This document shows, piece after piece, positions 7,665-39,728 of a stretch of 39,728 nucleotides of DNA. This stretch comes from Lachnospiraceae bacterium (GTDB lineage Bacteria; Bacillota; Clostridia; Lachnospirales; Lachnospiraceae), in the NCBI GenBank assembly GCA_017514845.1, contig JAFWIM010000073.1, positions 1 to 39,728 on the forward strand. The letters run 5' to 3'. How positions within the stretch are numbered: position 1 is the stretch's first letter; each line of letters starts with the position of its first letter. The notes beneath the pieces were generated by a model, which was not told where the DNA came from, ran no database searches, and was given only the letters and a program-made list of their open reading frames with translations. Position numbers and translations under genes: made by a program.

Positions 7665-7863
7665 CCGGTTGCCGCTCGAACAGGCTGCCCCTGAATTCCA
7701 GGGTCCGGCGCAAGCATCATCTTCATCGAAAAGCGCAGATCCTGCCCTCCGAGCCTAACAATGCTGCGCATTGTTGGTCTCTCAGTCGGACCTGCAATGC
7801 TTTTCTCACGAAGATGGATGCTTTGCTCCGGAATTGAAGTATTATAGCAGCCTGCCTGAACCG
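7665..7863 (-). mobile_element. Palindromic MITE-like element, copy 1
   Basis: About 199 bp. In the orientation used for the family it lies on the minus strand. The right outer repeat GCAGCCTGCCTGAACCG (7847-7863) is intact and the left one (7665-7687) is degenerate. The conserved arms are at 7716-7743 (containing CATCTTCATCGAAAAGCGC) and 7787-7816 (containing GCTTTTCTCACGAAGATG). The tip carries AACAATGCTGCGCATTGTT. It lies between the J-domain gene's terminator and the AGCS promoter. ORFs crossing it are artefacts. Confidence 0.75.
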
Positions 7864-7867
7864 ATAT

Positions 7868-7894
7868 AAAAAAGACCAGCCCAAGTGACCGGTC
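7868..7894 (-). terminator. Terminator after the J-domain gene
   Basis: On the minus strand GACCGGTC (7887-7894), loop ACTTG and GGCTGGTC (7874-7881) form an 8-bp stem with two G-T pairs, followed by TTTTTT. Confidence 0.8.
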
Positions 7895-7913
7895 CAACAG
7901 ACATACTCATTAA

Positions 7914-8648
7914 TCAGAAGAAGAAAAATCCCCCGCGGCCGCCCATGCAGCAGTTGCAGAGCATATTGGCCAGACACAGATAGTAGCACATCTGCTGCTG
8001 GCTGACATTGTTCATACCGCCGAAACCGTAGTAGCGGTTCTGATTCTGATACCAGGTACCGCTGTTGGTCATCTGGTTGACCAGCATAGAGTACATCTGG
8101 TTATCCGGCTCCATGTCCGCCGCCCGCTTCGCGTAATCGAGGGCCGTGACATTGTTGCCTATACCGCGGCTCGCGATGGCTGCGTAATAGTACCAGCGGG
8201 CTCTTCTGTTGATCTCCGGCACGCCGTTCAGAGCGTTCAGTGCCTCACGGAAGTAGCCGTTGTTAATGTAGTTGCGGGCTGCTCTCTCCTCATTGGTCTC
8301 CGCGCTGTCCTGCGCTCTCTGCTGGTCGGAGTACTGCTGCCACTGATTGAAGTACTCGTTGAAGGCTCCCGCGCTGCCGTAATTTGCATAACTCTGATAA
8401 CCCGGGCCTCCGCTCTGCTGATAGCTCTGGCTCTGAGGCTGTCCGTATCCGCTTGTCCCGCGCTCACGGGCGTCAAGGATTTGGCGATAGGATTCCTGCA
8501 CTTCCTTGAACCTTGCCTCTGCGTACTCCGTATTATCCGGGTTCTGATCCGGGTGCCATTTTTTACTTTTCTCTCTATATGCCTTTTTGAGCTCGGCATC
8601 CGTACAGCCGGGATCTACGCCCAGCACCTTATATGGGTCGGCTATCAT
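7914..8648 (-). CDS. J-domain protein with Q/G/Y-rich linker, helical repeats and Cys/aromatic tail
   Basis: A 244-residue DnaJ-domain co-chaperone, expected to stimulate an Hsp70 ATPase. Residues 3-65 form the J domain (DPYKVLGVDPGCTDAELKK), with the essential HPD at 32-34. Residues 66-115 are rich in Gln, Gly, Tyr and Ser (GYGQPQSQSYQQSGGPGYQS). Residues 118-200 look like tetratricopeptide-type helices (NNGYFREALNALNGV; ALDYAKRAADMEPDN). The last 25 residues are Cys- and aromatic-rich (CYYLCLANMLCNCC, then GGRGGFFFF), which could bind membrane or metal. There is no DnaJ zinc domain, so it is not the general DnaJ. The ATG overlaps the stop of the upstream DUF5685 gene (ATGA), indicating translational coupling and probably a shared job. 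The client is unknown. Confidence 0.85.
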   Translation of the reverse strand: MIADPYKVLGVDPGCTDAELKKAYREKSKKWHPDQNPDNTEYAEARFKEVQESYRQILDARERGTSGYGQPQSQSYQQSGGPGYQSYANYGSAGAFNEYFNQWQQYSDQQRAQDSAETNEERAARNYINNGYFREALNALNGVPEINRRARWYYYAAIASRGIGNNVTALDYAKRAADMEPDNQMYSMLVNQMTNSGTWYQNQNRYYGFGGMNNVSQQQMCYYLCLANMLCNCCMGGRGGFFFF

Positions 8649-9487
8649 TTCTGTTCCTCACTTTTCTTCTCGCGCTTTTCCCTGACTTCCTCATATTTCT
8701 GCCAGACACCTGAATAGATAATGTTCCGGAGAATATCGACATCCTGGACGATCGGAAGCCGTTCAAATGACTTTGCGCACTCGGAGATCATCATCATGAG
8801 AGTGTTCTCCACAAGGGCATCGAAATCCTTTCTGTCCTTGCTCGGCTGCCAGGGATTGTATGCCCCTTTCTTCAGATCCTTTTCCAGATCCTCAAAGGCA
8901 TCGAGCAAATAGATGAACTTGCCGAGATAAAAGCCCAGCCTCCGCAGCTCATCCGACCACACGCTATCCTCATAGACCAGCAGCTCGGCCAGCATATTGC
9001 CTGTGAACCCCGCCACTTTATCCAGATTATACTCGCGCCGCTCCTCCGTCTGAGCGAGGCTCCTTGTGGCTTCCTCGAAGACTTTTGCCTGACGGGGGTA
9101 TGCGTTGGCAGCTCTCTCGAATTTTTTCTTCTCTTTCCTGACAAAAACTCTGCCGATCATGCTTCCGTCATCGTTCACATCATCCAGCATTTTATAGTAG
9201 GTCAGGAGGAGCGTCATGTCCGCGCAGTAGTCCGTGATCTCGTTCATCAGCATATCCTGCTTTCTGACCGGATGGACCATGCAGCGGTGCCGCTCGCTTT
9301 TCAGCGGCAGCTCCATGTAAGCGTTGAGCAATATGTCGACAAAAGTCATATCGTATGTCAGTTCAAGCTTCCCTGATATGCCGTATTTTTTCTCAAGGAC
9401 TCTGCAGAGACCGCAGTAAAAGCTGCGGTATCGGTTGTAATCTTTGAGCTTCAGTTCGTCCTGATTGACCATAACGTATCCGAACAT
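8645..9487 (-). CDS. DUF5685 family protein (280 aa)
   Basis: The N-terminus, MFGYVMVNQDELKLKDYNRY followed by RSFYCGLCRV, matches what I know of DUF5685, a family without assigned function. The chain is all-helical. Two Asp clusters stand out: LDDVNDD at 101-107 and DAFEDLEKDLKKGAYNP at 196-212. The second resembles the EDxxxGRxYLP motif of squalene/phytoene synthases, and the spacing of about 95 residues is also similar, so a class I isoprenoid-synthase-like fold is possible (inference). Cys25 and Cys28 (YCGLC) with Cys70 and Cys88 could bind metal. GGAGG precedes the ATG at 9487. It is the first gene of a pair with the coupled J-domain gene. No isoprenoid genes are adjacent. Confidence 0.8.
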   Translation of the reverse strand: MFGYVMVNQDELKLKDYNRYRSFYCGLCRVLEKKYGISGKLELTYDMTFVDILLNAYMELPLKSERHRCMVHPVRKQDMLMNEITDYCADMTLLLTYYKMLDDVNDDGSMIGRVFVRKEKKKFERAANAYPRQAKVFEEATRSLAQTEERREYNLDKVAGFTGNMLAELLVYEDSVWSDELRRLGFYLGKFIYLLDAFEDLEKDLKKGAYNPWQPSKDRKDFDALVENTLMMMISECAKSFERLPIVQDVDILRNIIYSGVWQKYEEVREKREKKSEEQK

Positions 9488-9528
9488 GCTGTACCTCCGG
9501 CAAATGTCATAGAATTGATATTCCCATT

Positions 9529-9586
9529 AAAACAAACGAGGCACGACTTGAATGGTGCTTCTTCTGCCCATTATTCAAGCCCTGCC
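9529..9586 (-). terminator. Terminator after the zinc-ribbon membrane gene
   Basis: Imperfect arms 9540-9555 (GGCACGACTTGAATGG) and 9568-9586 pair with small bulges. On the minus strand TTTGTTTT follows. It separates the zinc-ribbon gene from the DUF5685 gene. Confidence 0.65.
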
Positions 9587-9617
9587 TGATTTTGCCTGTT
9601 ATATGCCGTACAGTTTT

Positions 9618-10046
9618 TCAGGTCTTGCCCGTGAACTGTCTGCCGCACTTCCTGCAGGTAATTTTGATGTGTCCCTTCCCTCTCGGCACGCGGAGCTGCT
9701 GTCCGCATTCGGGGCACTTGAAATACTTGTAATCTTTGCGTTCGGACTGCTGTTTCTTCTTGATCCTGAAAAATTTCCTGATGGCCGCAGTCTTCTCGAG
9801 GTACCAGCGGTTCTCGGCGGATCGCTTCGCATAATTCTTTGACAGGATCCGGAACCACGTGTAAATGAAGATGATCCATGTAAAAATGTTCAGAACAGTT
9901 CCGGCGATGCCGCCCCTCAGGAACATCGAGATGACAATGATCACAAGCAGGGCATATACAAGGAACATGCCGAACGCGTCGGTGCCGTAGCGCCCGATCA
10001 TAAAATTGCGGAAACGGTCACCGAGCCTTCGAAAAAAATTATCCAT
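9618..10046 (-). CDS. Two-span membrane protein with C-terminal zinc ribbon (142 aa)
   Basis: Function unknown. Numbering from the ATG at 10046, residues 25-43 and 49-66 are hydrophobic membrane segments, each end bordered by basic residues. Residues 70-105 form a strongly basic cytoplasmic linker (RIKKKQQSERK). Residues 111-134 form a four-cysteine zinc ribbon: CPEC at 111-114 and CRKC at 131-134. The start is set at 10046 because TTGGAG lies about 8 bases upstream. The longer frame to 10088 has no ribosome site and would start inside the leader hairpin. Similar short membrane zinc-ribbon proteins are common in Clostridia. The gene is monocistronic, with promoter and terminator. Confidence 0.8.
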   Translation of the reverse strand: MDNFFRRLGDRFRNFMIGRYGTDAFGMFLVYALLVIIVISMFLRGGIAGTVLNIFTWIIFIYTWFRILSKNYAKRSAENRWYLEKTAAIRKFFRIKKKQQSERKDYKYFKCPECGQQLRVPRGKGHIKITCRKCGRQFTGKT

Positions 10047-10094
10047 TTTTAATACTCCAATTCGTATTATTGCGGGCGGAACCCGCATAAAGCC

Positions 10095-10123
10095 ATGATA
10101 ATACGTAAAAAACGCATTGGCAA
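10095..10123 (-). promoter_or_regulatory. Promoter of the zinc-ribbon membrane gene
   Basis: On the minus strand TTGCCA (10118-10123) and TATCAT (10095-10100) are 17 bases apart. A small GCGGG/CCCGC hairpin lies in the leader (10072-10086). Confidence 0.65.
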
Positions 10124-10195
10124 GGAATAGAATTGGATTTATAAAACTTTAATAAAGACAAGTTTAATAAAGTTGAAAAATAATAAAAAAAGTGC

Positions 10196-10224
10196 TTGCA
10201 TTTTTCTCAGCACTCGCATATAAT
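10196..10224 (+). promoter_or_regulatory. Promoter of tRNA-Lys
   Basis: TTGCAT (10196-10201) and TATAAT (10219-10224) are separated by 17 bases. An A/T-rich stretch (10140-10190), typical of an UP element, lies upstream. The mature tRNA begins about 35 bases after the -10. Confidence 0.85.
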
Positions 10225-10258
10225 AACACTTGCGTCAAGGAAAGACACAAAAATAAAT

Positions 10259-10331
10259 GCGCTTCTAGCTCAGTTGGTAGAGCACCTGACTCTTAATCAG
10301 GGTGTCCGGGGTTCGAGTCCCCGGAGGCGCA
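10259..10331 (+). tRNA. tRNA-Lys (anticodon CUU)
   Basis: A 73-base cloverleaf. The acceptor arms GCGCTTC (10259-10265) and GAGGCGC (10324-10330) pair fully, with one G-T. The D arm is GCTCAGTTGGTAGAGC. The anticodon stem CCTGA/TCAGG encloses loop CTCTTAA, giving anticodon CUU, which reads AAG. The T arm is CGGGG-TTCGAGT-CCCCG, and the discriminator is A73. No CCA is encoded. Confidence 0.97.
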
Positions 10332-10340
10332 GGCTCAGAG

Positions 10341-10371
10341 AAAACGGAAGACTTTCGGTCTTCCGTTTTTT
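10341..10371 (+). terminator. Terminator of tRNA-Lys
   Basis: AAAACGGAAGAC (10341-10352) pairs with GTCTTCCGTTTT across a 5-base loop, ending in six T. It begins ten bases after the tRNA. Confidence 0.92.
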
Positions 10372-10411
10372 GTTATTCGAACCCGGCTGATCATGCAGCG
10401 CTCGCACTGAA

Positions 10412-10445
10412 CTTTTTCATGCGTCCGAACAGGCAGCATGAAAAG
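10412..10445. repeat. Inverted repeat between tRNA-Lys and trx
   Basis: CTTTTTCATGC (10412-10422) and GCATGAAAAG (10436-10445) are complementary over ten bases around a 13-base loop. There is no U-tract on either strand, and the role is not evident. Confidence 0.6.
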
Positions 10446-10460
10446 CGGAGTCGAGCAGAC

Positions 10461-10509
10461 GAAACGGGCTGTTGCATCAGACGTTGTCTCGTCTTAATGC
10501 CACAGCCCG
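10461..10509 (-). terminator. Long-hairpin terminator after trx
   Basis: Arms CGGGCTGTTGCATCAGACG (10465-10483) and its near-complement (10490-10509) pair with two small mismatches. On the minus strand TTTCGTC follows. It is one of several terminators here that share a GGGCTG...GCA stem. Confidence 0.7.
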
Positions 10510-10530
10510 CTTATTTTACAATACTATACC

Positions 10531-10851
10531 TCAGCCGATCACTTTCTGGATCAGCGCCTGGAACTGATTCGGTGCCATACCGCCGATCGCATTCTCAACG
10601 ACCTCGCCGTTCCTGAAGAACAGGAAGTTCGGGATGGACATGACCTTATACTGCATGACTGCGTCGCCGTCCTCATCCACGTTCAGCTTGCAGAATTTCA
10701 TTTTGCCGTCAAAGAGCTCCGCCATCTTGTCCACGACCGGGCTCATCATCTTGCACGGGCCGCACCAGTCTGCATAGCAGTCCAGAAGGACCGGCAACTC
10801 AGATTTCAGAACTTCGTTCTCAAATGTATCGGATGTAACTTTTACTACCAT
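10531..10851 (-). CDS. trxA: Thioredoxin
   Basis: A 106-residue single-domain thioredoxin that reduces protein disulfides in the cytoplasm, itself reduced by thioredoxin reductase (trxB lies about 7 kb away, at 17595). The active site WCGPC is at residues 29-33, and the cis-proline is P74 in VMSIPNFLFF. The pre-active-site segment PVLLDCYADWCGPCK has Cys25 where many thioredoxins have Phe or Ala, and an extra Cys54 is present. The ATG at 10851 is chosen because AAAGGAGG sits 7 bases upstream. The longer frame to 10938 starts inside the untranslated leader. The gene is monocistronic, with its own promoter and a long-stem terminator. Confidence 0.96.
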   Translation of the reverse strand: MVVKVTSDTFENEVLKSELPVLLDCYADWCGPCKMMSPVVDKMAELFDGKMKFCKLNVDEDGDAVMQYKVMSIPNFLFFRNGEVVENAIGGMAPNQFQALIQKVIG

Positions 10852-10940
10852 ACTATACCTCCTTTGTTTACGCCGTCCGGAAAGCACGCGGTCTGCGGTG
10901 CGTTCGCGGGGCTTTGATGGTCTACACTTGTGATACATTT

Positions 10941-10969
10941 ACTATAACACAAAATTTAAGTTTTGGCAA
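10941..10969 (-). promoter_or_regulatory. Promoter of trx
   Basis: On the minus strand TTGCCA (10964-10969) and TATAGT (10941-10946) are 17 bases apart. The leader is about 80 bases long. Confidence 0.8.
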
Positions 10970-11051
10970 TTATATTTTGTCACATTTAATTTTATTCTTC
11001 CATTCTTTTGGGCGCCGGTCTCGCGGTCTTCCGAAAGACCGATAGCCTATC

Positions 11052-11795
11052 TCACAGCTTTGTTTCTTCCTCCGCCTCCGCCGTAGGTTTCTTATACACA
11101 GCGATGAGTTTATTGATCTTATTTCCGAGCAGAGAAAACTTTCTCTCATACTCGGTCATAATATTGTCCACACCCATAACTTCATCGCGGTGAAGGTCAT
11201 ATGTCACGGCGCGCAGCTCCCAGTTCGGCGCCTCATTGAACTCCTCCACGGAAAAATCGAACAGTGCCCGGTTGTCCGTCTTGAATTCCAGGACACCCCC
11301 GTCGATCAGAAATTTCTCATACAGCGCAAGAAATTCATGGGAGGTAAGTCGGCGCTTTGAGTGTCTGGCTTTCGGCCACGGGTCGGAGAAGTTGAGGTAA
11401 ATGCCTGCTACTTCGTTTTCGGCAAACACCTCCGGCAGTCCTCTCGCATCCATGCGCAGAAAATGCAGATTCTCCGGAGGCGTGAACTCCGCGGGATCCG
11501 TCTCCTGCTCCATCGCCTCGATCGACCTGGAAGCCGGGTCCATGGCCGGTCTCCCCTCCATCTTCTGGCAGGCTCTCATGAGCACGCTCTCATACATCTC
11601 TACGCCGATGTATTCATTTTCTGGGTGCCTTGCGGCGAGCTCCATCAGGAACCGTCCCTTGCCGGTCCCGATTTCGACATACAGCGGTCCTCCGGAAAAG
11701 GCACTCCACCTACCCTTCCGCTCCGCCGGGTTCTTAATTACATACGGGCTTTTTGCCACTATTTCTTTTGCTTCCGGTATATTTCTTAATCTCAT
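11052..11795 (-). CDS. trmB: tRNA (guanine-N7-)-methyltransferase
   Basis: TrmB methylates G46 in the variable loop of tRNAs using S-adenosylmethionine. The family N-terminus MRLRNIPEAKEIV fixes the start at 11795 (247 residues). The SAM-binding motif is VEIGTGKG (40-47), followed by YIGVEMYES. The catalytic and RNA-binding segment is NFSDPWPKARHSKRRL (135-150). The protein is longer than the roughly 213 residues of the B. subtilis enzyme, because a charged insertion lies at about 80-108 between the SAM-binding and catalytic motifs. There is no convincing ribosome site. The promoter -10 ends six bases before the ATG, so the mRNA is predicted to be leaderless. A CGGTCTT/AAGACCG hairpin (11024-11041) follows the stop but lacks a U-tract. 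Confidence 0.95.
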   Translation of the reverse strand: MRLRNIPEAKEIVAKSPYVIKNPAERKGRWSAFSGGPLYVEIGTGKGRFLMELAARHPENEYIGVEMYESVLMRACQKMEGRPAMDPASRSIEAMEQETDPAEFTPPENLHFLRMDARGLPEVFAENEVAGIYLNFSDPWPKARHSKRRLTSHEFLALYEKFLIDGGVLEFKTDNRALFDFSVEEFNEAPNWELRAVTYDLHRDEVMGVDNIMTEYERKFSLLGNKINKLIAVYKKPTAEAEEETKL

Positions 11796-11801
11796 GCAGT
11801 C

Positions 11802-11830
11802 ATTATACACCACTTGCTCGCAATTGTCAG
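11802..11830 (-). promoter_or_regulatory. Promoter of trmB (predicted leaderless transcript)
   Basis: On the minus strand CTGACA (11825-11830) and TATAAT (11802-11807) are 17 bases apart. With usual spacing the first transcribed base falls at 11795, the A of the ATG. Confidence 0.8.
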
Positions 11831-11843
11831 GGCAGTTCTTATC

Positions 11844-11958
11844 ATGTAAACGGGGCTGCCGCATCAGGGAGCGTTCTCATTGTACACAGCAGATGCCCTT
11901 TGCAAATGCATGCTGTTCGAAGTGAGAACGCCGTCCGATGTGACAGCCCCGCTTTACA
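11844..11958 (-). terminator. 115-bp long hairpin between galE and trmB
   Basis: A nested inverted repeat. ATGTAAA-CGGGGCTG (11844-11858) pairs with CAGCCCCG-C-TTTACAT (11943-11958). Inside it AGCGTTCTCA (11870-11879) pairs with TGAGAACGC (11922-11930), and near the tip ACAGCA/TGCTGT pair. It begins two bases past the galE stop and ends 14 bases before the trmB -35. A terminator role for galE is likely, but the U-tract is weak. It may instead be a small repeated element. Confidence 0.6.
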
Positions 11959-11960
11959 TT

Positions 11961-12977
11961 TTAGTCTTCGTAACCGTTCGGATTATGGCTCTGCCAGTTC
12001 CATGCGTCAGTGCACATATCTTCCAGATTCTTCTCAGCGACCCAGCCGAGAACCTCGCGGGCTTTCGTCGGGTCCGAATAGCAGGTAGCGACATCGCCCG
12101 GACGTCTCGGATCGATAACGTACGGAAGATCCTTGCCGCAGGCCTTTGAGAAGGCTCTGATAATGTCGAGTACGCTGTAGCCGTTGCCGGTGCCGAGATT
12201 GAAGATCTGGACACCCGGAAGCGTCTCCATTCCCTTTATCGCAGCGACGTGGCCCTTGGCCAGATCAACTACGTGGATGTAGTCACGGACGCCGGTGCCG
12301 TCCGGTGTGTCATAGTCATTGCCGAAGACATGGACTTTTTCAAGTTTGCCTGTCGCGACCTGGGCTACATACGGAAGCAGGTTGTTCGGGATGCCCTTCG
12401 GGTCCTCGCCGATGCGTCCGCTGGCGTGAGCGCCGATCGGGTTGAAGTAGCGGAGCAGCATGACCTGCCACTCGTTGTCGCTTCTCCAGATGTCTGTCAG
12501 AATGCGCTCCTGCATTGCCTTGGTCTCGCCGTACGGATTCGTGCGCTCGCCCATCGGGCACTCCTCGGTGATCGGAATAAAGGCGGGATCGCCGTAGACT
12601 GTCGCGGATGATGAGAAGACGATCTTCTTCACGCCGTGATTTCTCATAACATCGCAGAGGACCAGGGTGGATTCGATATTATTGTGATAGTACTCGATCG
12701 GCTTTCTCGTGGATTCTCCGACGGCCTTGTAGCCTGCGAAGTGGATGACCGCGTCGATATCCTCATGATCGAACAGCTCATTCATCGCCCGCTTGTCCGT
12801 CACGTCGACCTCATAGAATGCCGGGCGTTTTCCCGCCAGCTCCTCGATACGGTCAACAACGAGCGCCTTCGAATTATACAGGTTGTCAGCGATGACAACG
12901 TCATAGCCCGCGTTAATAAGCTCAATACATGTGTGGCTTCCGATAAAGCCTGTTCCGCCTGTTACAAGAATTCTCAT
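11961..12977 (-). CDS. galE: UDP-glucose 4-epimerase
   Basis: GalE interconverts UDP-galactose and UDP-glucose, the last step of the Leloir pathway. It also supplies UDP-galactose for surface polysaccharides. At 338 residues it is full length. The NAD-binding motif GGTGFIGSH is at 7-15. The catalytic triad of the extended short-chain dehydrogenase family is S124 (FSSSATVYG), Y149 and K153 (NPYGETKAM). The substrate-domain motifs LRYFNPIGAH and PDGTGVRDYIHV are present. GGGAGGAAATG-type ribosome sequence precedes the ATG at 12977. It starts 23 bases after the galT stop and ends the galK-galT-galE operon, followed by the 115-bp hairpin. Confidence 0.97.
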   Translation of the reverse strand: MRILVTGGTGFIGSHTCIELINAGYDVVIADNLYNSKALVVDRIEELAGKRPAFYEVDVTDKRAMNELFDHEDIDAVIHFAGYKAVGESTRKPIEYYHNNIESTLVLCDVMRNHGVKKIVFSSSATVYGDPAFIPITEECPMGERTNPYGETKAMQERILTDIWRSDNEWQVMLLRYFNPIGAHASGRIGEDPKGIPNNLLPYVAQVATGKLEKVHVFGNDYDTPDGTGVRDYIHVVDLAKGHVAAIKGMETLPGVQIFNLGTGNGYSVLDIIRAFSKACGKDLPYVIDPRRPGDVATCYSDPTKAREVLGWVAEKNLEDMCTDAWNWQSHNPNGYED

Positions 12978-13000
12978 ATGTCATTTCCTCCCTTGTATTA

Positions 13001-14527: not shown

Positions 14528-14670
14528 ATGCCTGCCTTCTTTCTCCTTGGTCATGCAAATAACTTTTCGCGTGAATATCAGCCGGCTCGTGCCGGCTGCG
14601 CCTTCGGACCCATGGCAGACGCGCATGCGCCAGCCTGCCATAATCATCCTTTCACTGTATATAATATAAT

Positions 14671-14694
14671 AAAGGTGGTATCTGTACCACCTTT
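14671..14694. promoter_or_regulatory. 24-bp perfect palindrome between galK and galT
   Basis: AAAGGTGGTA (14671-14680) and TACCACCTTT (14685-14694) are exact complements around TCTG. On the minus strand it is followed by an A/T stretch (ATTATATTATATA). It could be an operator or an internal weak terminator that lowers galT-galE expression. A second small hairpin, AGCCGGC-ACGA-GCCGGCT, follows at 14580-14598. Confidence 0.6.
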
Positions 14695-14707
14695 AAATCG
14701 TGCAACT

Positions 14708-15883: not shown

Positions 15884-15900
15884 CTGATTATTCCTCGCAT

Positions 15901-15952
15901 GTGTACTACAAATGTAATTTTATTCTCAGAAGAAATCATTTGCAATGTACAC
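15901..15952 (-). promoter_or_regulatory. galK promoter with an imperfect inverted repeat (possible gal operator)
   Basis: On the minus strand TTGCAA (15940-15945) and TAAAAT (15917-15922) are 17 bases apart. GTGTACTACAAATG (15901-15914), just downstream of the -10, and CATTTGCAATGTACAC (15937-15952), covering the -35, form an imperfect inverted repeat sharing GTGTAC and CAAATG. This suits repressor binding across the promoter; the regulator is not in the window. Confidence 0.6.
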
Positions 15953-16394: not shown

Positions 16395-16443
16395 ATCCTG
16401 TGTGTATGAAAGATACGCATACATCCGTCCCCGCGCCGCAATG

Positions 16444-16470: not shown

Positions 16471-16495
16471 CGATGCGCTCATTGCATTGTCTCGT

Positions 16496-18506: not shown

Positions 18507-18522
18507 TTATAAGACAGTGTCA

Positions 18523-18725
18523 GGTAACAGTTCAGGCAGGCAGTTAATATAGTTCGTTAACGGCTCAAAGCATCCATCTTCGTGAGAAAAACATTGCAGG
18601 TCCTTCTCTGCGAGCTTAGCAATGCATATGCATTGCTAAGCTCGCAGAGAAGGACCTGCGTTTTTCGATGAAGATGATGTTTGCGACGTACCTCAGCCCC
18701 TGGACAGCCTGCCTGAACTGTTACC
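18523..18725 (+). mobile_element. Palindromic MITE-like element, copy 2 (best-preserved; with target-site duplication)
   Basis: A 203-bp element with perfect 19-bp terminal inverted repeats, GGTAACAGTTCAGGCAGGC (18523-18541) and its complement (18707-18725). It is flanked on both sides by the direct repeat GTGTCA (18517-18522 and 18726-18731). The centre is a 64-bp perfect palindrome (18596-18659), preceded by CATCTTCGTGAGAAAAACATT and followed by GTTTTTCGATGAAGATG. No coding sequence is present. It lies just past the trxB stop. Confidence 0.85.
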
Positions 18726-18751
18726 GTGTCAGACATCCCTGAAAAATATGT

Positions 18752-24088: not shown

Positions 24089-24124
24089 GATATGACCTCC
24101 TAATATTATTTTAATTTTATACAT

Positions 24125-24175
24125 GCGCTTTTCGATGAAGATGATGTTTGCGCCGGTATGTTGAGCTTCGCCGCA
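24125..24175 (+). repeat. Right-half fragment of the palindromic element (copy 3)
   Basis: CGCTTTTCGATGAAGATGAT and the following outer segment (GCGCCGGTATGTTGAGCTTCGCC) match the right half of copy 4 at 24313-24360. The left half and tip are missing. The fragment abuts copy 4 directly and ends 36 bases before the ntpK start on the other strand. Confidence 0.75.
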
Positions 24176-24375
24176 GCAGTTCAGACCGGCTGCATTCACA
24201 GTTCGTTATCCGGCAGTGAGCATCCATCTTCGTGAGAAAAGCATTGCGGGTCCGACCGAGAGATCGCGCAACGGCGGCTTACCGCCTGCGCAAGCTCGCA
24301 GGGAAGGACCTGCGCTTTTCGATGAAGATGATGCTTACGCCGGTATATGGAGTTTCGCTGCAGCCCGTCTGAAAC
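24176..24375 (+). mobile_element. Palindromic MITE-like element, copy 4, inside the ATPase operon
   Basis: About 200 bp. The left end GCAGTTCAGACCGGCTG (24176-24192) and the right end CAGCCCGTCTGAAAC (24361-24375) are imperfect inverted repeats. The inner arms GAGAAAAGCATTGCGGGTCC (24233-24252) and GGACCTGCGCTTTTC (24306-24320) pair. The tip differs from copy 2: it holds GGCGG-CTTA-CCGCC (24273-24286). It lies between subunit I and subunit K genes. Confidence 0.8.
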
Positions 24376-24388
24376 GAAGCTGAGTTAA

Positions 24389-32584: not shown

Positions 32585-32606
32585 ATATCTGTTCCTCGTC
32601 ATTTCT

Positions 32607-32803
32607 GCAGTTCAGACAGGCTGTAACGAAGTTTCATGAACCGGCGCAAACATCATCTTCATCGAAAAGCGCAGGTCCTTCTCTGCGAGCTTAGCAATGC
32701 ATATGCATTGCTGATCTCTCGGTCGGACCTGCAATGCTTTTCTCACGAAGATGAATGCTTTGCTGCCGGTAAACGATCTTTAAGAACAGCTTGTCTGAAC
32801 TGC
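32607..32803 (-). mobile_element. Palindromic MITE-like element, copy 5, between pth and mfd
   Basis: About 197 bp, in minus orientation. Outer repeats GCAGTTCAGACAGGCTGT (32607-32624) and ACAGCTTGTCTGAACTGC (32786-32803) are inverted with one extra base. Inner arms lie at 32652-32679 and 32724-32752. The tip contains GCAATGCATATGCATTGC (32693-32710), flanked by one half of each tip type. It ends about 20 bases before the mfd ATG. Confidence 0.8.
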
Positions 32804-32964
32804 TGCTCAACTCCGTATCCAACACAAACATCACCCTCATTGAAAAATGAAGATTCTTGCTGAACTGCTGCACAGCTCCGTATCCAGCGCAAACATCACC
32901 CTCATTGAAAAATGAAGATTCCTTGCTGCCGGTAATCAAAAGCGATCGCAGTCTGGCTGAACTG
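32802..32964. repeat. Two tandem, tip-deleted derivatives of the palindromic element
   Basis: Two direct copies of about 62 bp (32805-32865 and 32867-32928) share CTCCGTATCCA and then a short hairpin, TCATTGAAAAATGA. The arms correspond to the conserved CATCTTCATCGAAAA and TTTTCTCACGAAGATG of the full element, with the central tip lost. The second copy is followed by TTGCTGCCGGTAA and CTGGCTGAACTG, matching the outer part of copy 5. Confidence 0.7.
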
Positions 32965-32990
32965 TATGAATGCGTCACAATCCGAGCACG

Positions 32991-33560: not shown

Positions 33561-33626
33561 ATTGATCTCCTTCACGGGTTTTATCGCGCACGTATTGCCG
33601 CGCTCCAGGTTGACCGCGGTTTTTCA

Positions 33627-33654
33627 ATTATACCAGATAGGCGCGCGATTGCAA
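33627..33654 (-). promoter_or_regulatory. Promoter of pth
   Basis: On the minus strand TTGCAA (33649-33654) and TATAAT (33627-33632) are 16 bases apart. Confidence 0.8.
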
Positions 33655-33743
33655 GTATGTCGTTTTATAACAGAATACAGGGTTTTTTCTTTTGCTGTTG
33701 CCAAGGCTGCTGTTGCCAAGGTATCACACGCCCTCTACCGAAC

Positions 33744-33772
33744 TTGCGTTTTGTGCTGTTAACAGTTATAAT
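33744..33772 (+). promoter_or_regulatory. Promoter of the P-type ATPase
   Basis: TTGCGT (33744-33749) and TATAAT (33767-33772) are 17 bases apart, with TGTTAACA in the spacer. Just upstream GCTGTTGCCAAGG occurs twice (33694-33706 and 33709-33721). The leader, about 95 bases, contains a CAGTGA/TCACTG inverted repeat (33811-33842) but no riboswitch that I recognise. Confidence 0.75.
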
Positions 33773-33872
33773 CAAGTATATATGTCAATTTATCAATTAT
33801 CATATAAAAAACAGTGAGAGCCCTCTGATAAGTTTTCACTGCGACACACTTTACAAAGGAGATTTCATCTCT

Positions 33873-36800
33873 ATGTCACTTACTGATAAAGAAACACATC
33901 AAAAAGATGAGGTCCTGTTCTCCGGGTCCATGCGTCACCGCAAGCTTCCTCGCGCCCGCAGGCGCAAGAAGCGGGCACCTGAAATAACAGCCCCGCCAGT
34001 CGGAATGATCGATCCCCTGACCGGGGAGATCACAGTACCGGATGAAGCGGACGATCTTTCGGAAGCGAATATCTCAAGCCCTGACGAAGTGATCTATCCC
34101 ACGACCGATAACGACACTGTTCGGGAAGCTGTGATCAATCCTCTGGCGAACGACAGCACTGTCCGGGAAGACATTATTGATTCCGCGGCGGAAGATATGA
34201 TCATCCCCGATGATTCGCAGGACTATGACTCGTCGGATGACCTGCTGTGGACCGATCTTGATGACGCAGATACAGATGAAGATAACGAGTCTGATGACGA
34301 AGTCGACGTCCCTGACTTTTCAGCAGGCACAGACATCGAAGACACCTACCGTCATGACATTACGGACGCCGAGGAGCAGGCTGATGAGGAGTCTTCCGGC
34401 AGATTCTCTCTGTCAAACATATTCAGGAAAACACGCTCCGATAAAAAGAGGAAAAAGAAACCTCAGAACCGCCGAAAAGCAGCCCCCTCTAAGGGCAAAA
34501 GAAGCAGCTCTAAAGAGGAAACATCCATCGAGGATGAGGATGACGATCTCGCAGACGACATGAGCGAAGATTCCGACTACGATGACGATTTGGTGGATGA
34601 CGCAAGCAAGGATTCTGACTACGACAGTGATCAGACTAATGACGAAAGTGAAGCAGAGGACGACGAAACCGAAGAGACGGAAGAACCCGAAGTCGTACAC
34701 AACCCGGTCATACGCTATGACCCCGATCTCACCTATGGTCTGACGGCTGAGGAGGTCTCCGACCGAGAGGCGGAGGGACTCATCAACGTGACAGTCCGCA
34801 AGGGCCAGAAGACGGTCCGGCAGATCGTACTCTCCCACACGCTGACCTACTTCAACTTGCTGAATATCCTTCTCGGCATTCTTGTCGCGACGACCGGTCA
34901 GTGGAAGAACATGCTCTTCCTCGGCATCATAATAGGAAACTCCGCAATTGGAATCTTCCAGGAATTGAAAGTCAAGTCGCTCATCGACAACCTGACGGTG
35001 ATCACGGCGGCAAGGGTGACCGCGATTCGCGACGGCAGCGAAGAAGAGATGCCGGTCGACAACATCGTGGTCGATGATGTCATAAAACTCGGCCCCGGCG
35101 ATCAGGTCGTCACTGACGGGCGAGTCTTCGACTGCCGCGGGCTCGAAGTCAACGAGTCAATGCTGACGGGCGAGTCACGGGCCGTCAAAAAGCGGGACGG
35201 CGATCAGGTCCTGTCCGGCAGCTTCATCATAGCCGGCACCGCGCTGCAGCGCGTCGACAAGGTCGGCAACGAGAGCTACGCTTCCCAGCTGGTCGCGAAA
35301 GCATCCCACAAGAAGCGCGCGAGCTCCGAGATGCAGCGCACGATCGGCAGGATCATCAAGGTCGTCTCCGTAATCATTATCCCGGTAGGCCTTCTGCTCT
35401 ACCGCAGTCAGATGATCGCGAACGGCGGGGTATTTGCAAATGCAATCATCCGCACCGTCTCCGGCATCATCGGCATGATTCCTGAAGGTCTTGTCCTGCT
35501 GACCTCCGTCTCATTCATCATCGGCGTCGGACGTCTTGCCAACAAAAAGGCCCTCGTCCAGGAGATGCCGTCCATAGAGTCACTTGCCAGGGCAAATATC
35601 ATTTGCACCGACAAGACCGGAACCATCACGACCGGAGAGCTGCGCGTGAACGAGGTCCTGCCCATGGGCCGCGTCACCCGCGATCAGGTCATGGACATCA
35701 TGGCCCACATAAACAGCGCCTTCACCGACACAAATGTCACGCAGGACGCACTGAACGCGGCATTCGGCCAGTCAAAGGGCTGGGCTGCGCGGGGCATCAT
35801 CCCGTTCTCGTCCGAACGAAAATTCAGAGCTGTGTCTTTCGACGAACACGGTGATTATGTACTTGGCGCTCCGGAATTCATCGTACCGAACAACAAGGCT
35901 GCCCTCGACGTCGTGGACACCTACTCGCAGCAGGGTTACCGTGTACTCCTTCTGGGCCGGTCCAAAGGCATAGATACGGAGACCGGAGACAAGGGAACCG
36001 TAACACCGATCGCGGCCATCATCATATCGGACGTGATCAAGGAGGACGCGAAGGAGACATTTGCATACTTCGCGAAGTCTGGCGTTGCCATCAAGGTCCT
36101 GTCCGGCGACAACCCGCTGACAGTCTCCAGTGTTGCCAAGAAAGCCGGTATCGCCGGTGCCGAAAAATATGTAGACGCCACAAAGCTCCCCGAGGATCCC
36201 ACTGCCTTCCAGCAGGCTGTCATGAAATACAGCGTCTTCGGGCGCGTCAAGCCGGAGCAGAAGCAGGCCTTCATCAAGGCGTGGCAGGCAGCCGGCATGA
36301 CCGTCGCCATGGTCGGAGACGGCGTCAACGACGTTCTTGCGATCAAGGACGCCGACTGTGGCATCGCGATGGCATCCGGTTCAGAGGCAGCAAAACAGGC
36401 AGCACATATCGTGCTTATGGATTCCGACTTTTCATCGATGAAGGATATTGTGAAGGAAGGAAAGACGATCATCGCCAACATCGAGAGGGTCAGCTCCCTC
36501 TACCTGACAAAGACGATCTACTCCTGCCTGCTCTCGGTCATCTTCATACTCCTTCGGACACCGTACCCGTTCACTACGCTGCAGATGGGACTCATCAATC
36601 TCTGCGGTATCGGAATGCCGAGCTTCCTGCTCACGCTCGAGCAGCAGGAAGATGTGACCACAAGCGGCTTCCTGAAGCATGTCCTTCAGACGGCTCTTCC
36701 GGCCGCGCTCACCATGGTGACATCTATGCTGATCGTGCAGATCCTGAACGCGATGTTCCCATGGACGACCGATATCTTCTCGACCTTCAATCTGATGCTC

Positions 36801-37100
36801 GGAGGGCTCGTGTCCATGCTCGTCGTTGCCAGCGTCTGCTGGCCGCTTGCCCCTTACCGCAAGTTCGTGCTTGCTGTAAGCTCCGTCGTGTTCCTCGGAG
36901 CAGTCATCCTGCTCCCGAACTTTTACGACATGCACTCGATCTTCATGTGGTGGTCGCTGCTCCTTCTGCCATTATCCATCCTGGTCGCGATCATGATTTC
37001 CGTGTACTCGATGCTCACGCAGAAGGCTATCATAAGGCTTGGCAGGATGAAGCAGGAAATGGACGCAAGGCGTAAGCGCTACGATCCGGATATTTATTAA
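33873..37100 (+). CDS. CtpE-like cation-transporting P-type ATPase with long acidic N-terminal extension
   Basis: A 1075-residue P-type ion pump. The catalytic core begins near residue 290. It has the actuator motif LTGES (TGES 432-435), the M4 motif IPEGLVLLTSVSF (P537), the phosphorylated D580 in CTDKTGTITTGE, and the hinge GDGVND (815-820). About ten membrane helices are present. The M4 region and the QEMPSIESLAR stretch before DKTGT resemble mycobacterial CtpE, a calcium transporter, so Ca2+ is the best guess. Residues 1-285 are an added cytoplasmic region. They contain a basic cluster (HRKLPRARRRKKRAP), then acidic Asp/Glu/Ser tracts broken by a second basic block (SDKKRKKKPQNRRKAAPSKG). 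No membrane or metal-binding domain is visible there. The start at 33873 follows AAAGGAG by about 11 bases; the upstream frame is untranslated leader. Confidence 0.9.
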   Translation: MSLTDKETHQKDEVLFSGSMRHRKLPRARRRKKRAPEITAPPVGMIDPLTGEITVPDEADDLSEANISSPDEVIYPTTDNDTVREAVINPLANDSTVREDIIDSAAEDMIIPDDSQDYDSSDDLLWTDLDDADTDEDNESDDEVDVPDFSAGTDIEDTYRHDITDAEEQADEESSGRFSLSNIFRKTRSDKKRKKKPQNRRKAAPSKGKRSSSKEETSIEDEDDDLADDMSEDSDYDDDLVDDASKDSDYDSDQTNDESEAEDDETEETEEPEVVHNPVIRYDPDLTYGLTAEEVSDREAEGLINVTVRKGQKTVRQIVLSHTLTYFNLLNILLGILVATTGQWKNMLFLGIIIGNSAIGIFQELKVKSLIDNLTVITAARVTAIRDGSEEEMPVDNIVVDDVIKLGPGDQVVTDGRVFDCRGLEVNESMLTGESRAVKKRDGDQVLSGSFIIAGTALQRVDKVGNESYASQLVAKASHKKRASSEMQRTIGRIIKVVSVIIIPVGLLLYRSQMIANGGVFANAIIRTVSGIIGMIPEGLVLLTSVSFIIGVGRLANKKALVQEMPSIESLARANIICTDKTGTITTGELRVNEVLPMGRVTRDQVMDIMAHINSAFTDTNVTQDALNAAFGQSKGWAARGIIPFSSERKFRAVSFDEHGDYVLGAPEFIVPNNKAALDVVDTYSQQGYRVLLLGRSKGIDTETGDKGTVTPIAAIIISDVIKEDAKETFAYFAKSGVAIKVLSGDNPLTVSSVAKKAGIAGAEKYVDATKLPEDPTAFQQAVMKYSVFGRVKPEQKQAFIKAWQAAGMTVAMVGDGVNDVLAIKDADCGIAMASGSEAAKQAAHIVLMDSDFSSMKDIVKEGKTIIANIERVSSLYLTKTIYSCLLSVIFILLRTPYPFTTLQMGLINLCGIGMPSFLLTLEQQEDVTTSGFLKHVLQTALPAALTMVTSMLIVQILNAMFPWTTDIFSTFNLMLGGLVSMLVVASVCWPLAPYRKFVLAVSSVVFLGAVILLPNFYDMHSIFMWWSLLLLPLSILVAIMISVYSMLTQKAIIRLGRMKQEMDARRKRYDPDIY

Positions 37101-37139
37101 GAGAATACTAATTCTTACACAACGAATCCACTTATTAAA

Positions 37140-37172
37140 GGGGCTGCCGCACTGAACTGCGGCAGCCCCTTA
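37140..37172 (+). terminator. Terminator of the P-type ATPase
   Basis: GGGGCTGCCGCA (37140-37151) and TGCGGCAGCCCC (37158-37169) form a 12-bp perfect stem with a 6-base loop, followed by TTAT. The U-tract is short but the stem is very stable. Confidence 0.8.
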
Positions 37173-37196
37173 TCTAAATCGATTTGACAGTCTCAT

Positions 37197-37565
37197 TTCT
37201 TTCGGCTCCAGGGCAAAGGCAACTAAATTGGCTCATTTCAGGCCTTTCTGCTGCCTTTGTGAGATGTGTCTTCTTTCGGCTCCAGGGCAAAGGCAGCTAA
37301 ATTGGCTCATTTCAGGCCTTTCTGCTGCCTTTGTGAGATGTGTCTTCTTTCGGCTTCAGGGCAAAGGCAGCTAAATTGGCTCATTTCAGGGATTTTTGCT
37401 GCCTTTGTGAGAGGTGTAATCTTTAGGCTTTAGGGCAAAGGCAGCTAGATTGACCCATTTCAGGGATTTCTGCTGCCTTTGAACAAATCAATTTTTTCGG
37501 TTCAATGGCAAAGGCAGCTAGATTGCCTCATTTCAAGGCTTTCTGCTGCCTTTGAACAAATTTAC
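37197..37565. repeat. Five tandem 74-bp hairpin-forming repeats
   Basis: Units start at 37197, 37271, 37345, 37419 and 37492. Each contains GCAAAGGCAGC, a 26-base loop with an almost invariant CATTTCA core, and GCTGCCTTTG, so each can form a 10-bp stem; unit 1 has one mismatch. Units 1 and 2 are nearly identical, unit 3 has diverged slightly, and units 4 and 5 have diverged further. 74 is not a multiple of three and no ORF spans the array. The loops are repeated too, so this is not a CRISPR. It fills the space between the convergent P-type ATPase and glgB genes; 37566-37651 shows nothing clear. Confidence 0.9.
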
Positions 37566-37651
37566 ACACAAAGTAAAGCCGGCTACGAGACAGATTCATA
37601 ATACAGGCAGAAATGCCACCCTGCTCATCAAAAAGAGAGGGGTCATACCTG

Positions 37652-39454
37652 TCATTTCACTTCAAATAGTATCGAGCCGAACGGCGCAAGCTCAATCTCT
37701 ACCCCGGTCACGGAATCCGCCCTGAGAAGCGCGGCCTCCGCCGGCAGCTCCTTCGTCTGACCGCCGAAGCGCTCCCAGTCCGTATTTAAGATTGGCATGA
37801 GATCTCCGGACTTCTCCGGGTGCAGCCAGTAAGTCTGTTTTTGGTTCGAGAAGTTAAAGATCGCTATGACATTCTTCTTCAGCGTCTTATCGTAGCGCTC
37901 GATTCCGAACAGGTTTCTGCCGTTGTCATTGATCGTGACCCACCTAAAGCCCTTAGGGTCGTAATCCATCTCATAGAGCGCGGGATACTCGCAATAAATC
38001 CTTCCGAGCTCGGCAAAATAATGCTGAAAAGCGTCGTGGTTCGGATATTTCAAAAGGAAATAATCGGGTTCCTTGGTCTCATCCCACTCGCGGAACATCG
38101 CGATCTCATTGCCCATGAAATTCAGCTTCTTGCCCGGATGTATCATCATATAGAGATACAGGGATCTGCACTGCGGGAACTTCATCTCGTAGTCACCGAA
38201 GATCTTGTCGATGATCGTCTTCTTACCGTGGACGACCTCGTCATGGGAAAGCGGAAGCAAATGCCGCTCGTTGTAGAAATAGAACATTGAGAAGGTAAGC
38301 TTCTCCGGCACATTCTTCCTCTCGTCCGACTGCTTCATAAAATAGTCAAGAGTGTCATTCATCCAGCCAAGGTCCCACTTGTAATCGAATCCGAGACCGC
38401 CCAACCAGGTCGGCTTCGTCCCGCCCGGATAGGATGTGGAATCCTCCGCAATCAGCATAGCTGTCGGATGAAGTCTGTGAAGGCCCTCATTCAGCTGCTT
38501 CAGGAAATCGACGGATGTCTCGTTCACACCGCGCTTCTCGTCTCCCATCCAGTAGATAACGCGGCTTATGGCATCCATGCGCAGACCGTCGAAATGGTAC
38601 TCGGCCAGCCAGTAATTGGCCGCGGACATCATGAAGCTCATGACTTCCCTTCGGGCATAGATAAAATTGCGTGTTCCCCACTCACTGTCAGAGACGTCGC
38701 TTGCCGGGTACTCGTAGAGCTCGGTGCCGTCGTATTCTTTGAGGGCGTAGTAGTCATTTGCAAAATGCGCCGGGACAAAATCGACAATAGCGCCGATGCC
38801 CGCGTTGTGCAGCCTGTCGACCAGCTTTTTCAGCTGCGCTGCTGTGCCATAGCGGGATGTTGGCGCGAAAAATCCGGTCTGCTGATATCCCCAGCTCCCG
38901 TCAAACGGATGCTCGGCCAGCGGCATGAATTCAACATGCGTAAAGTGGTACTTCTTCAGATATGCAATCAGATCATCCGCGATTTCATCATACTTGTACC
39001 AGCCGTTCGGGTCAGCGTCATTGCGCTTCCAGGAACCCAGATGCAGCTCATATATATTCAGAGGCTTATCGTAATTGAGAGTTCTCTCCTTCATCCACTT
39101 CTCGTCAGAGAAATAGTACTCGTCAAGATTCCTTATGATTGATGCGAAATTCGGGCGCAGCTCCATTCCGAAGCCGTACGGGTCGCAGTGCTCGATGCGG
39201 CCGAGCTTGCTGTAAACCGCGTATTTATACATCTGCCCGACCTTAGCCTCCGGAATCGTGATTTCAAAAAAGCCTTTTCTCTCTCTGTCTGACATAAAAG
39301 TGTCTGTCCAGCCGTTGAACTCGCCGAGTACTGCTACCTTGTCGGCATTGAGTGCAAATGTCCTGAAGGTCACTCCGCCGTCCTTCTCAGGGTGCGCGCC
39401 GAGATACTTGTATACGTCGAATGCCTTACCGTCATAAAACTTCTGAAAATCCAT
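37652..39454 (-). CDS. glgB: 1,4-alpha-glucan branching enzyme
   Basis: GlgB makes the alpha-1,6 branches of glycogen. From the ATG at 39454 it has 600 residues. Residues 20-110 form the CBM48-type N-terminal domain (VAVLGEFNGWTDTFM). The GH13 barrel follows, with HVEFMPLAEHPFDGSWGYQ, nucleophile D294 (DGLRMDAISR), acid/base E337 (LIAEDSTSYP) and D405 (PLSHDEVVHGK). A C-terminal beta domain is last. This start has GGAGAGG just upstream; the in-frame TTG at 39472 is unlikely. It is monocistronic here, and no other glg gene is in the window. The promoter and a further palindromic element lie upstream. Confidence 0.97.
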   Translation of the reverse strand: MDFQKFYDGKAFDVYKYLGAHPEKDGGVTFRTFALNADKVAVLGEFNGWTDTFMSDRERKGFFEITIPEAKVGQMYKYAVYSKLGRIEHCDPYGFGMELRPNFASIIRNLDEYYFSDEKWMKERTLNYDKPLNIYELHLGSWKRNDADPNGWYKYDEIADDLIAYLKKYHFTHVEFMPLAEHPFDGSWGYQQTGFFAPTSRYGTAAQLKKLVDRLHNAGIGAIVDFVPAHFANDYYALKEYDGTELYEYPASDVSDSEWGTRNFIYARREVMSFMMSAANYWLAEYHFDGLRMDAISRVIYWMGDEKRGVNETSVDFLKQLNEGLHRLHPTAMLIAEDSTSYPGGTKPTWLGGLGFDYKWDLGWMNDTLDYFMKQSDERKNVPEKLTFSMFYFYNERHLLPLSHDEVVHGKKTIIDKIFGDYEMKFPQCRSLYLYMMIHPGKKLNFMGNEIAMFREWDETKEPDYFLLKYPNHDAFQHYFAELGRIYCEYPALYEMDYDPKGFRWVTINDNGRNLFGIERYDKTLKKNVIAIFNFSNQKQTYWLHPEKSGDLMPILNTDWERFGGQTKELPAEAALLRADSVTGVEIELAPFGSILFEVK

Positions 39455-39502
39455 ATTTTTCCTCTCCCGCAACTGTCCTTCAGTGAAATTTCCTTTTACT
39501 AC

Positions 39503-39530
39503 TTTATAGTAAATTAACGCATTTTGTCGA
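39503..39530 (-). promoter_or_regulatory. Promoter of glgB
   Basis: On the minus strand TCGACA (39525-39530) and TATAAA (39503-39508) are 16 bases apart, giving a leader of about 40 bases. Confidence 0.7.
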
Positions 39531-39571
39531 TAGACACTTCCTCACTTTTGTATGTCTTTAACTCGCTGCAG

Positions 39572-39728
39572 GGTAACAGTTCAGACAGGCTGTTCTTACA
39601 CCCCGGTTCCGGCAGCAAAGCATTCATCTTCGTGAGAAAAACATTGTCGGTCCGACTGAGAGATCGCGAAGGCGGCTTGACGCCTGCGCAAGCTCGCAGG
39701 GAAGGACCGACGTTTTTCGATGAAGATG
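39572..39728 (+). mobile_element. Palindromic MITE-like element, copy 6 (cut by window end)
   Basis: Starts with GGTAACAGTTCAGACAGGC (39572-39590), one base different from the copy 2 end. Arms GAGAAAAACATTGTCGGTCC (39634-39653) and GGACCGACGTTTTTC (39705-39719) pair, with AGGCG/CGCCT in the tip as in copy 4. The right end is beyond the window. Confidence 0.8.

What the first reader, a model, noticed from the sequence alone, without database searches (positions are those of the whole stretch)
7665..39728. Family of about 200-bp palindromic elements with compensatory stem changes
Five full or near-full copies and several fragments occur in 40 kb (copies 1-6 at 7665, 18523, 24125, 24176, 32607 and 39572). 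All share the inner arms ATCTTC-GTGA-GAAAA...GGTCC and GGACC...TTTTC-GAT-GAAGAT. Differences are matched across the stem. Copies 2 and 6 have A (left) with T (right) where copies 1, 4 and 5 have G with C, next to a 3-base ATT bulge. Copy 6 has GTCGGTCC/GGACCGAC where copy 2 has GCAGGTCC/GGACCTGC. Two tip types occur (GCATATGC-centred, and GGCGG/CCGCC-like). Paired change implies selection for, or templated maintenance of, the hairpin, at RNA or single-strand DNA level. I know of no named family with these ends.
Basis: partly seen in the sequence, partly recalled or inferred. Interest (0 to 1): 0.82.

Follow-up and report, generated by a model that had tools for sequence, protein, structure and literature searches.

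The report
Hairpin jumping elements with conserved core
The window carries copies of a family of about 200-base non-coding jumping DNA pieces that fold into long hairpins, sit mostly just behind genes in a few related gut bacteria, and keep their inner hairpin unusually constant while the rest drifts.

Summary
The window belongs to an unnamed Lachnospiraceae MAG (G000) with at least 113 places that match the core. Two close species carry many copies and five more of the genus carry diverged ones; no other sampled genus matched (filtered searches). Matched changes across the stem far exceed shuffled controls.

Termini are GTAAC...GTTAC and the 8 bases outside both ends match in exact register (14 of 150 copies at 7/8 or better, 0.15 expected): an 8-bp target-site duplication, so a MITE family. 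Copy 2 is absent at its site in both close species. The transposase is not identified.

At orthologous sites the inner core changes 1.9% against 10.8% in flanking DNA, while the terminal repeats average the flank rate. So the core is constrained after insertion, or homogenised. Most copies lie just behind stop codons, in either orientation; G.U pairs show no transcribed-strand bias. A minority carry at their tip a module resembling the orphan Rfam RNA Clostridiales-1, below its curated cut-off.

The parts
7668..7867 (-). Copy 1, full element; present in G025, internally deleted in G003 with its outer arms kept
18516..18523 (.). Left target-site copy AGTGTCAG of copy 2
18524..18724 (+). Copy 2, full element, GTAAC...GTTAC; absent at the same site in G025 and G003
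18596..18659 (+). Apical 64-nt perfect palindrome of copy 2, right-arm sequence on both arms
   Evidence: (I16)
18725..18732 (.). Right target-site copy CGTGTCAG of copy 2 (7 of 8 identical)
24121..24171 (+). Copy 3, right-half fragment directly before copy 4
24173..24380 (+). Copy 4, full element between two V-type ATP synthase genes; orthologues in G025 (L279) and G003 (L280)
32604..32806 (-). Copy 5, full element; orthologue in G025 (L058)
32795..32921 (-). Two tandem partial copies beside copy 5
   Evidence: D10
39573..39728 (+). Copy 6, cut by the end of the contig

Best explanation
The repeats are a family of non-autonomous DNA transposons (MITEs). Shown: ends GTAAC...GTTAC with an 8-bp target-site duplication; a body that is one long imperfect hairpin; at least 113 core places in this genome; presence and absence between close species; placement mostly just behind stop codons in either orientation. 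Inferred: a DDE-type transposase that cuts with an 8-bp stagger moved them in trans; this enzyme is not identified. Paired changes arise because whole hairpins are copied or exchanged, because one arm is occasionally re-templated from the other, and because selection removes unpaired changes in the inner core. The inner core (ATCTTC, a 4x3 loop, GAAAA, an ATT bulge, and GGTCC with its partner) probably still does something after insertion. The likeliest role is structural, in the 3' part of the transcript (protection or processing) or as a folded DNA site. That last step is a guess.
For: 8-bp duplication: mean identity 0.397 against 0.252 shuffled, z 11.3 at length 8 (next best 5.3 at 7 and 4.2 at 9); 14 of 150 at 7/8 or better against 0.15; best at zero shift. 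Termini sharply bounded. Copy 2 absent in both close species. Copy number. Covariation. At 23 of 24 orthologous pairs: core 24 of 1241 changed, flank 1147 of 10576, terminal repeats 96 of 897; in the 14 pairs with the same tip, core 7 of 756 against flank 593 of 6423, p 3e-21. 93 of 117 copies between co-directional genes lie nearer the upstream stop; median 28 against 136 bases. A 4x3 loop in G020 relatives whose stem letters differ (L038, L045, read by eye).
Against: No autonomous copy with these ends was found in the loci read. Most copies no longer show a clear duplication. No RNA-strand signal (54 sense against 51 antisense). Homogenisation by recombination could mimic constraint, although the same-tip pairs argue against it. 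Change in the terminal repeats is uneven: none at 7 of 23 pairs, up to 15 of 40 at others, so at some sites the whole element is conserved. Several pairs share one G000 or relative copy. Copies were found by similarity to the core, so loop retention (197 of 205) is inflated.
Confidence: 0.85

Rival explanations
1. REPIN-like palindromes moved as single-stranded hairpins by a Y1 (RAYT or IS200/IS605-like) transposase.
For: Two full-length Y1 matches and six partial ones in the genome; hairpins with paired changes, as reported for REPINs (PMC3116915, passages).
Against: An 8-bp target duplication is not expected from single-strand Y1 transposition (recalled). None of the eight Y1 loci read shows the core or terminal pattern.
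Confidence: 0.05
2. A host structured RNA element (not a transposon) under RNA-level selection, multiplied by ordinary duplication.
For: Inner core constrained at orthologous sites, matched changes, 4x3 loop in diverged relatives, position between stop codon and terminator for copy 2.
Against: Target duplications and sharp ends; both orientations about equal (53 and 64 between co-directional genes); no excess of G.U on the transcribed strand.
Confidence: 0.05
3. The same transposon family, but without any function: paired changes and the constant core come only from recombination and template switching between copies and arms. (It shares the transposon part of the best explanation, so the odds overlap.)
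For: Arm-copied tips (3 of 205 by pattern); orthologous sites with swapped variants, 9 of 23 pairs with more than 2 tip differences; one site (L169/L223) with both outer arms changed while tip, nearly all of the core and nearly all of the flank stayed.
Against: In 14 same-tip pairs the core is still ten times slower than the flank; arm copying is rare and would erase the asymmetric loops.
Confidence: 0.3

Closest known systems
QMITE2 of Coxiella burnetii (PMC5896051, abstract and passages; PMC10969869, passages)
   Same: 150-190 bp MITE, full-length hairpin of about -113 kcal/mol, direct repeats of 7-11 nt, mainly in 3' untranslated and intergenic regions, about 50 copies.
   Different: Different host, unrelated sequence as far as seen; repeat length varies there, 8 here; no orthologue-based constraint map or paired-change analysis was in the passages I saw.
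REPINs (PMC3116915, passages)
   Same: Mobile hairpin doublets with compensatory changes, seen as selected replicating units.
   Different: Shorter, and no 8-bp duplication (recalled).
IS66 family (PMC11946415, passages)
   Same: 8-bp direct repeats; inverted repeats beginning GTAA.
   Different: Published start is GTAAGCG, here GTAACAG; no IS66 transposase match in G000 or G025.
ERIC, Correia/NEMIS (PMC10969869 and PMC2267715, passages)
   Same: Intergenic palindromic repeats found in transcripts; Correia transcripts are cut by RNase III.
   Different: Different sequences and target duplications (recalled); no cleavage tested here.
Clostridiales-1 RNA, RF01699 (PMC2864571, table passage)
   Same: Apical module of a minority of copies matches the whole model at 34.5-38 bits.
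   Different: Below the curated cut-off of 48 bits; two of the four loci gave no match; the ordinary elements lack the module.

Membership tests
MITE | Many short copies too small for a transposase gene | tested here: met
   Copy 2 is 201 bp; 113 places in G000
MITE | Terminal inverted repeats | tested here: met
   GTAACAGTTCAGACAGGCTG on both ends
MITE | Target-site duplication of fixed length | tested here: met
   8 bp, z 11.3, peak at zero shift
MITE | Autonomous partner sharing the ends | tested here: inconclusive
   Of 92 exact terminal words in seven relatives, 30 loci and 20 regions were read; none is an autonomous copy. One IS1634-type transposase lies beside a copy in G025, its own end shares only GACAGTTCAGA
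IS66-derived | 8-bp duplication and GTAA start | tested here: met
   but the published start GTAAGCG agrees only for GTAA
IS66-derived | IS66 transposase in the genome | tested here: not met
   0 matches in G000 and G025; one weak match in G003 at a place that scores far higher as IS256 type
REPIN / RAYT palindrome | No long target duplication; association with a Y1 transposase gene | tested here: not met
   8-bp duplication; no core or end pattern in the eight Y1 loci read
Clostridiales-1 RNA (tip module only) | Score above the Rfam gathering cut-off | tested here: not met
   34.5-38.0 bits against 48 in 7 of 7 loci; 2 of 4
Known Rfam family (element core) | A match above the family cut-off | tested here: not met
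   Window: only a tRNA; 8 loci at E up to 1: two hits far below cut-off

The most novel reading that the evidence does not exclude
The inner hairpin is a working structural module recognised by shape (4x3 loop, ATT bulge, GACYGAGA/GCAGGGRA loop). It is kept by host selection after insertion at around a hundred gene ends while the transposon ends decay, so a transposon family has been turned into a genome-wide set of 3'-end hairpins. Its variable tip is a slot that takes up other structured RNAs, including a Clostridiales-1-like domain, and spreads them.
Probability: 0.25. Interest if true: 0.75.

Novelty: new variant of a known kind. Interest (0 to 1): 0.52.

Why it matters
MITEs are normally expected to decay evenly after insertion (recalled). 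Here the ends on average decay at the flank rate and the middle does not. That separates what the transposase needs from what is kept afterwards, and makes the question 'what do bacterial 3'-end hairpin repeats do?' testable at around a hundred sites in one genome. The tip module also suggests how an orphan RNA family might be dispersed.

Tried and rejected
Transposase search: IS66 (PF03050) absent in G000 and G025; IS256 (PF00872) one per genome, with no matching end pair in those loci; Y1 loci without copies. Not tested for want of searches: ISL3, IS1595, IS6, IS4 and others as whole-genome searches. A solo end lies 1.4 kb from the IS256 gene in G000 contig C6, but no partner end was found in that 4.1-kb locus. 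Ten reading frames beside seven unpaired ends were scanned with Pfam: nine are ordinary genes, one is a 551-aa IS1634-family transposase (G025, L326:3318-4970). It lies between two copies of an element's right end, but these belong to an identical 99-base stretch on both sides of the IS (2989-3087 and 5259-5357), so the second end looks like a duplicate made when the IS came in (IS1634 is recalled to make long direct repeats). Just inside that IS, TTTTTGACAGTTCAGAAGG resembles our end GTGACAGTTCAGACAGG over 11 bases. I record it as a lead, not as the partner.

Elsewhere: no match in plasmids or phages for copy 2, none in IMG/VR for an exact end pattern; none for the tip module or the Clostridiales-1 consensus in plasmids. 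A 16-mer scan of IMG/VR gave 10 contigs that I did not study.

Kink-turn reading of the 4x3 loop: considered by eye, not tested, not claimed.

Insertion into hairpin loops in general: 16 of 153 sites lie in the GGGACGG palindrome, 0 of 3637 control points, but some of the 16 are orthologous pairs and several share junctions, so they may be a few events that spread; other sites show no stem across the site (2.39 against 2.40).

One search returned no paper; nothing to the point. One search timed out and was redone with BLAST. One search used badly chosen edges and was not used. In one search the printed partner lengths are wrong (a slip in my script); I used its sequences and core positions only.
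Full report
OBSERVATION. The repeats are there. Written out and folded with short flanks, copies 1, 2, 4 and 5 each give one long imperfect hairpin of -88 to -131 kcal/mol. The 24125 place is a right-half fragment directly before copy 4, and copy 6 is cut by the contig end.

COPIES. The window is contig C224 of an unnamed 3.18-Mb MAG in 259 contigs, 83% complete. A covariance model R1 was built from 30 of the cores then at hand. It lists 129 rows in this genome; 16 are the same place on the other strand, leaving 113 places, a lower bound because 150 of 1866 candidates were scored. The terminal word AGTTCAGACAGGCTGT with up to 2 mismatches has 185 hits against 1 for the reversed control. Among 99 genomes, 8 have matches, own included, all of the same genus (42 genomes of it, own included). 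Five (G005, G011, G020, G033, G035) have 1 to 7 weaker rows, in copies with a longer tip. Among 397 genomes of the family, from 334 genera, only the own genome matched (stricter filters, 9 candidates scored per genome in the rows shown). One hit sits in a MAG labelled Victivallales; its DNA aligns with G000 at 77.5% over 1183 bases (L272/L124), so it is probably mis-binned.

ENDS AND TARGET DUPLICATION. Aligning 169 copies on AGTTC, base composition is skewed for exactly five bases outside it (GTAAC) and flat beyond, on both sides. For 150 copies from three species, the bases directly outside GTAAC...GTTAC were compared left with right. At length 8 the mean identity is 0.397 against 0.252 for shuffled partners (z 11.3; 5.3 at 7 and 4.2 at 9); 14 copies match at 7 or 8 of 8 against 0.15 expected, and the maximum is at zero shift. 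Some copies are orthologous pairs and so not independent. Perfect examples are CACGACAG (L181), GGGCAGAG (L206) and CTTTTATC (L265). Copy 2 has AGTGTCAG/CGTGTCAG.

EMPTY SITES. The window part sent is syntenic with G025 C3 and G003 C346/C316/C318. At copy 2 both species lack the element: the stop codon of the pyridine-nucleotide oxidoreductase gene is followed almost at once by the terminator. Copy 1 is present in G025; in G003 the inner part is deleted and the outer arms remain. Copy 4 has orthologues in both. So many sites are shared between species, with gains and losses since. I built no species tree.

PAIRED CHANGES. With consensus arms as reference, deviations on the left arm matched by the complementary deviation on the right are 119 of 173 in the inner stem (shuffled 23.0, sd 4.6) and 111 of 277 in the outer stem (36.9, sd 5.4) in G000; 42 of 141 (4.5) and 96 of 228 (31.7) in G025 and G003. 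Copies scorable were 113 and 92 of 115, and 90 and 71 of 94 (totals). Shuffling ignores relatedness. At orthologous sites (27 of 29 pairs; two dropped by the script for length difference or duplication), 66 of 2143 base pairs changed on both sides against 11.6 expected if independent; 49 of the 66 keep pairing and 17 do not. Under random double change about 4 in 9 would keep pairing (own reckoning), so the excess is there but modest.

WHERE PAIRED CHANGES COME FROM. Copy 2 has a 32-bp perfect apical palindrome made of the right-arm sequence; L132 (the place of L029) has the left-arm sequence on the right. These look like arm-to-arm templating, but by pattern only 3 of 205 copies show it; the 33 T-type copies may be an older case. 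At several orthologous sites the two species carry different hairpin variants (L027/L052, L155/L060, L073/L047, L017/L245), so paired variants are also exchanged whole. At L169/L223 the flank differs at 6 of 480, tip 0 of 50, core 1 of 54, but the outer arms differ at 9 of 37 and are still paired.

CONSTRAINT. In 23 of 24 orthologous pairs (three copies are used in two pairs; the two pairs of window copy 4 were not included) the core changed at 24 of 1241 positions (1.9%), the tip at 107 of 1230, the middle at 244 of 1773, the terminal repeats at 96 of 897 (10.7%) and the flank at 1147 of 10576 (10.8%). In the 14 pairs whose tips differ by at most 2, which excludes swaps, the core changed at 7 of 756 and the flank at 593 of 6423 (p 3e-21), the terminal repeats at 43 of 537 (p 0.39 against flank) and the middle at 82 of 1080. 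Against a simple story: the terminal repeats show no change at 7 of 23 pairs and 5 to 15 changes at many others, so change there comes in bursts. An earlier split (20 of 24 pairs) gave core stem 1.6%, 4x3 loop 4.3%, ATT bulge 3.3%, inner stem 3.1%. Relatives in G020 have different stem letters but a 4-by-3 loop in the same place, and the diverged copies keep, with a few changes, a GACYGAGA / GCAGGGRA-like inner loop (read by eye). In the three main genomes the 4x3 loop is kept in 197 of 205 copies and the ATT bulge in 186, but copies were found with a pattern over this very region, so these two counts are inflated. T-type copies lack the inner asymmetry and are still numerous, so that part seems dispensable for movement.

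POSITION AND STRAND. With a simple codon-score gene caller, 80 of 115 G000 copies and 70 of 94 from G025 and G003 could be placed (the rest lie near locus ends). None of these was called inside a gene. 117 lie between co-directional genes (53 and 64 in the two orientations), 20 between convergent and 13 between divergent genes; 93 of the 117 lie nearer the upstream stop (median 28 bases) than the downstream start (median 136). If the transcribed RNA were selected, one-sided changes should favour G.U on the sense strand: 54 sense, 51 antisense. In all contexts together the element's own plus strand has more G.T than A.C (114 against 71, p 0.002), but related copies share these, so I do not build on it.

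TIPS AND NESTING. Sixteen of 153 sites lie between the arms of a second palindrome, GGGACGGTTCTTTTCRCGTG, and 0 of 3637 control points do. At least one has its own target copy in the loop (CGGATTTT, L165), but several share junctions or are orthologues, so independent events are fewer. Short elements of about 63-89 bp with the same ends exist. A roughly 110-base module has 16, 12 and 6 matches in G000, G025 and G003 and none in five others. Of 17 distinct module sequences in fetched loci, 13 lie between both core arms and both ends, one is partly so, and three (L177, L349, L203) stand outside any element. It matches Rfam Clostridiales-1 over the whole model at 34.5-38.0 bits in 7 of 7 loci (cut-off 48; E down to 2.8e-5), while in an earlier of 4 loci matched. 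Clostridiales-1 is listed in print as a probable RNA that is not cis-regulatory (PMC2864571, table passage). L349 and L177 sit among partial repeats of what I read as a tRNA 3' end.

MECHANISM. Shown: a transposon-like family with a fixed 8-bp duplication, hairpin body, paired change, slow core, 3'-end placement. Inferred: movement in trans by a DDE transposase. IS66 fits the duplication and GTAA (PMC11946415, passages) but is absent from G000 and G025. An IS1634-type element beside a G025 copy shares 11 bases with our ends near its own end; a lead only. Guess: the core works in the transcript or as folded DNA.

COMPARISON. QMITE2 and REPINs show that hairpin MITEs in 3' ends and compensatory change in mobile palindromes are already in print. 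What the word searches (open-access library; listings and passages seen) did not show is this family, or a MITE core slower than its own ends. I rate it a new variant of a known kind.

Noticed in passing
window 37197-37561: Five tandem copies of a 73-74 bp unit between a cation-ATPase-like gene and a glucan branching enzyme gene.
   Followed up: no
G000 C66:3357-3404 and other places: A REP-like 48-bp palindrome GGGACGGTTCTTTTCRCGTG (51 half hits, 0 control) that in part of its places encloses the 200-bp element.
   Followed up: partly
L182:212-316, L235, L336, L181, L185, L191, L329; free-standing in L349, L177, L203: A module resembling the orphan Rfam RNA Clostridiales-1, below cut-off, mostly at element tips; in L177 it lies about 1 kb from a partial Y1 transposase match.
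   Followed up: partly
L326:2780-5400 (G025 C20): An IS1634-family transposase gene flanked by an identical 99-base stretch that includes an element's right end; near the IS end stands GACAGTTCAGA, 11 bases of our terminal repeat.
   Followed up: partly
window 24173-24380: Copy 4 lies between V-type ATP synthase genes, 8 bases behind the subunit I gene, apparently inside the operon.
   Followed up: partly
L272: A contig labelled Victivallales (RGIG6713) carries the element and aligns with G000 DNA; probably a binning error.
   Followed up: partly
L031, L102, L318, window 24121-24380 and 32604-32921: Elements occur as tandem pairs or triplets with their flank, and the array length differs between species.
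   Followed up: partly
L140 (G000 C257:21723): An element whose tip holds another long palindrome, shared with G025 (L221).
   Followed up: no
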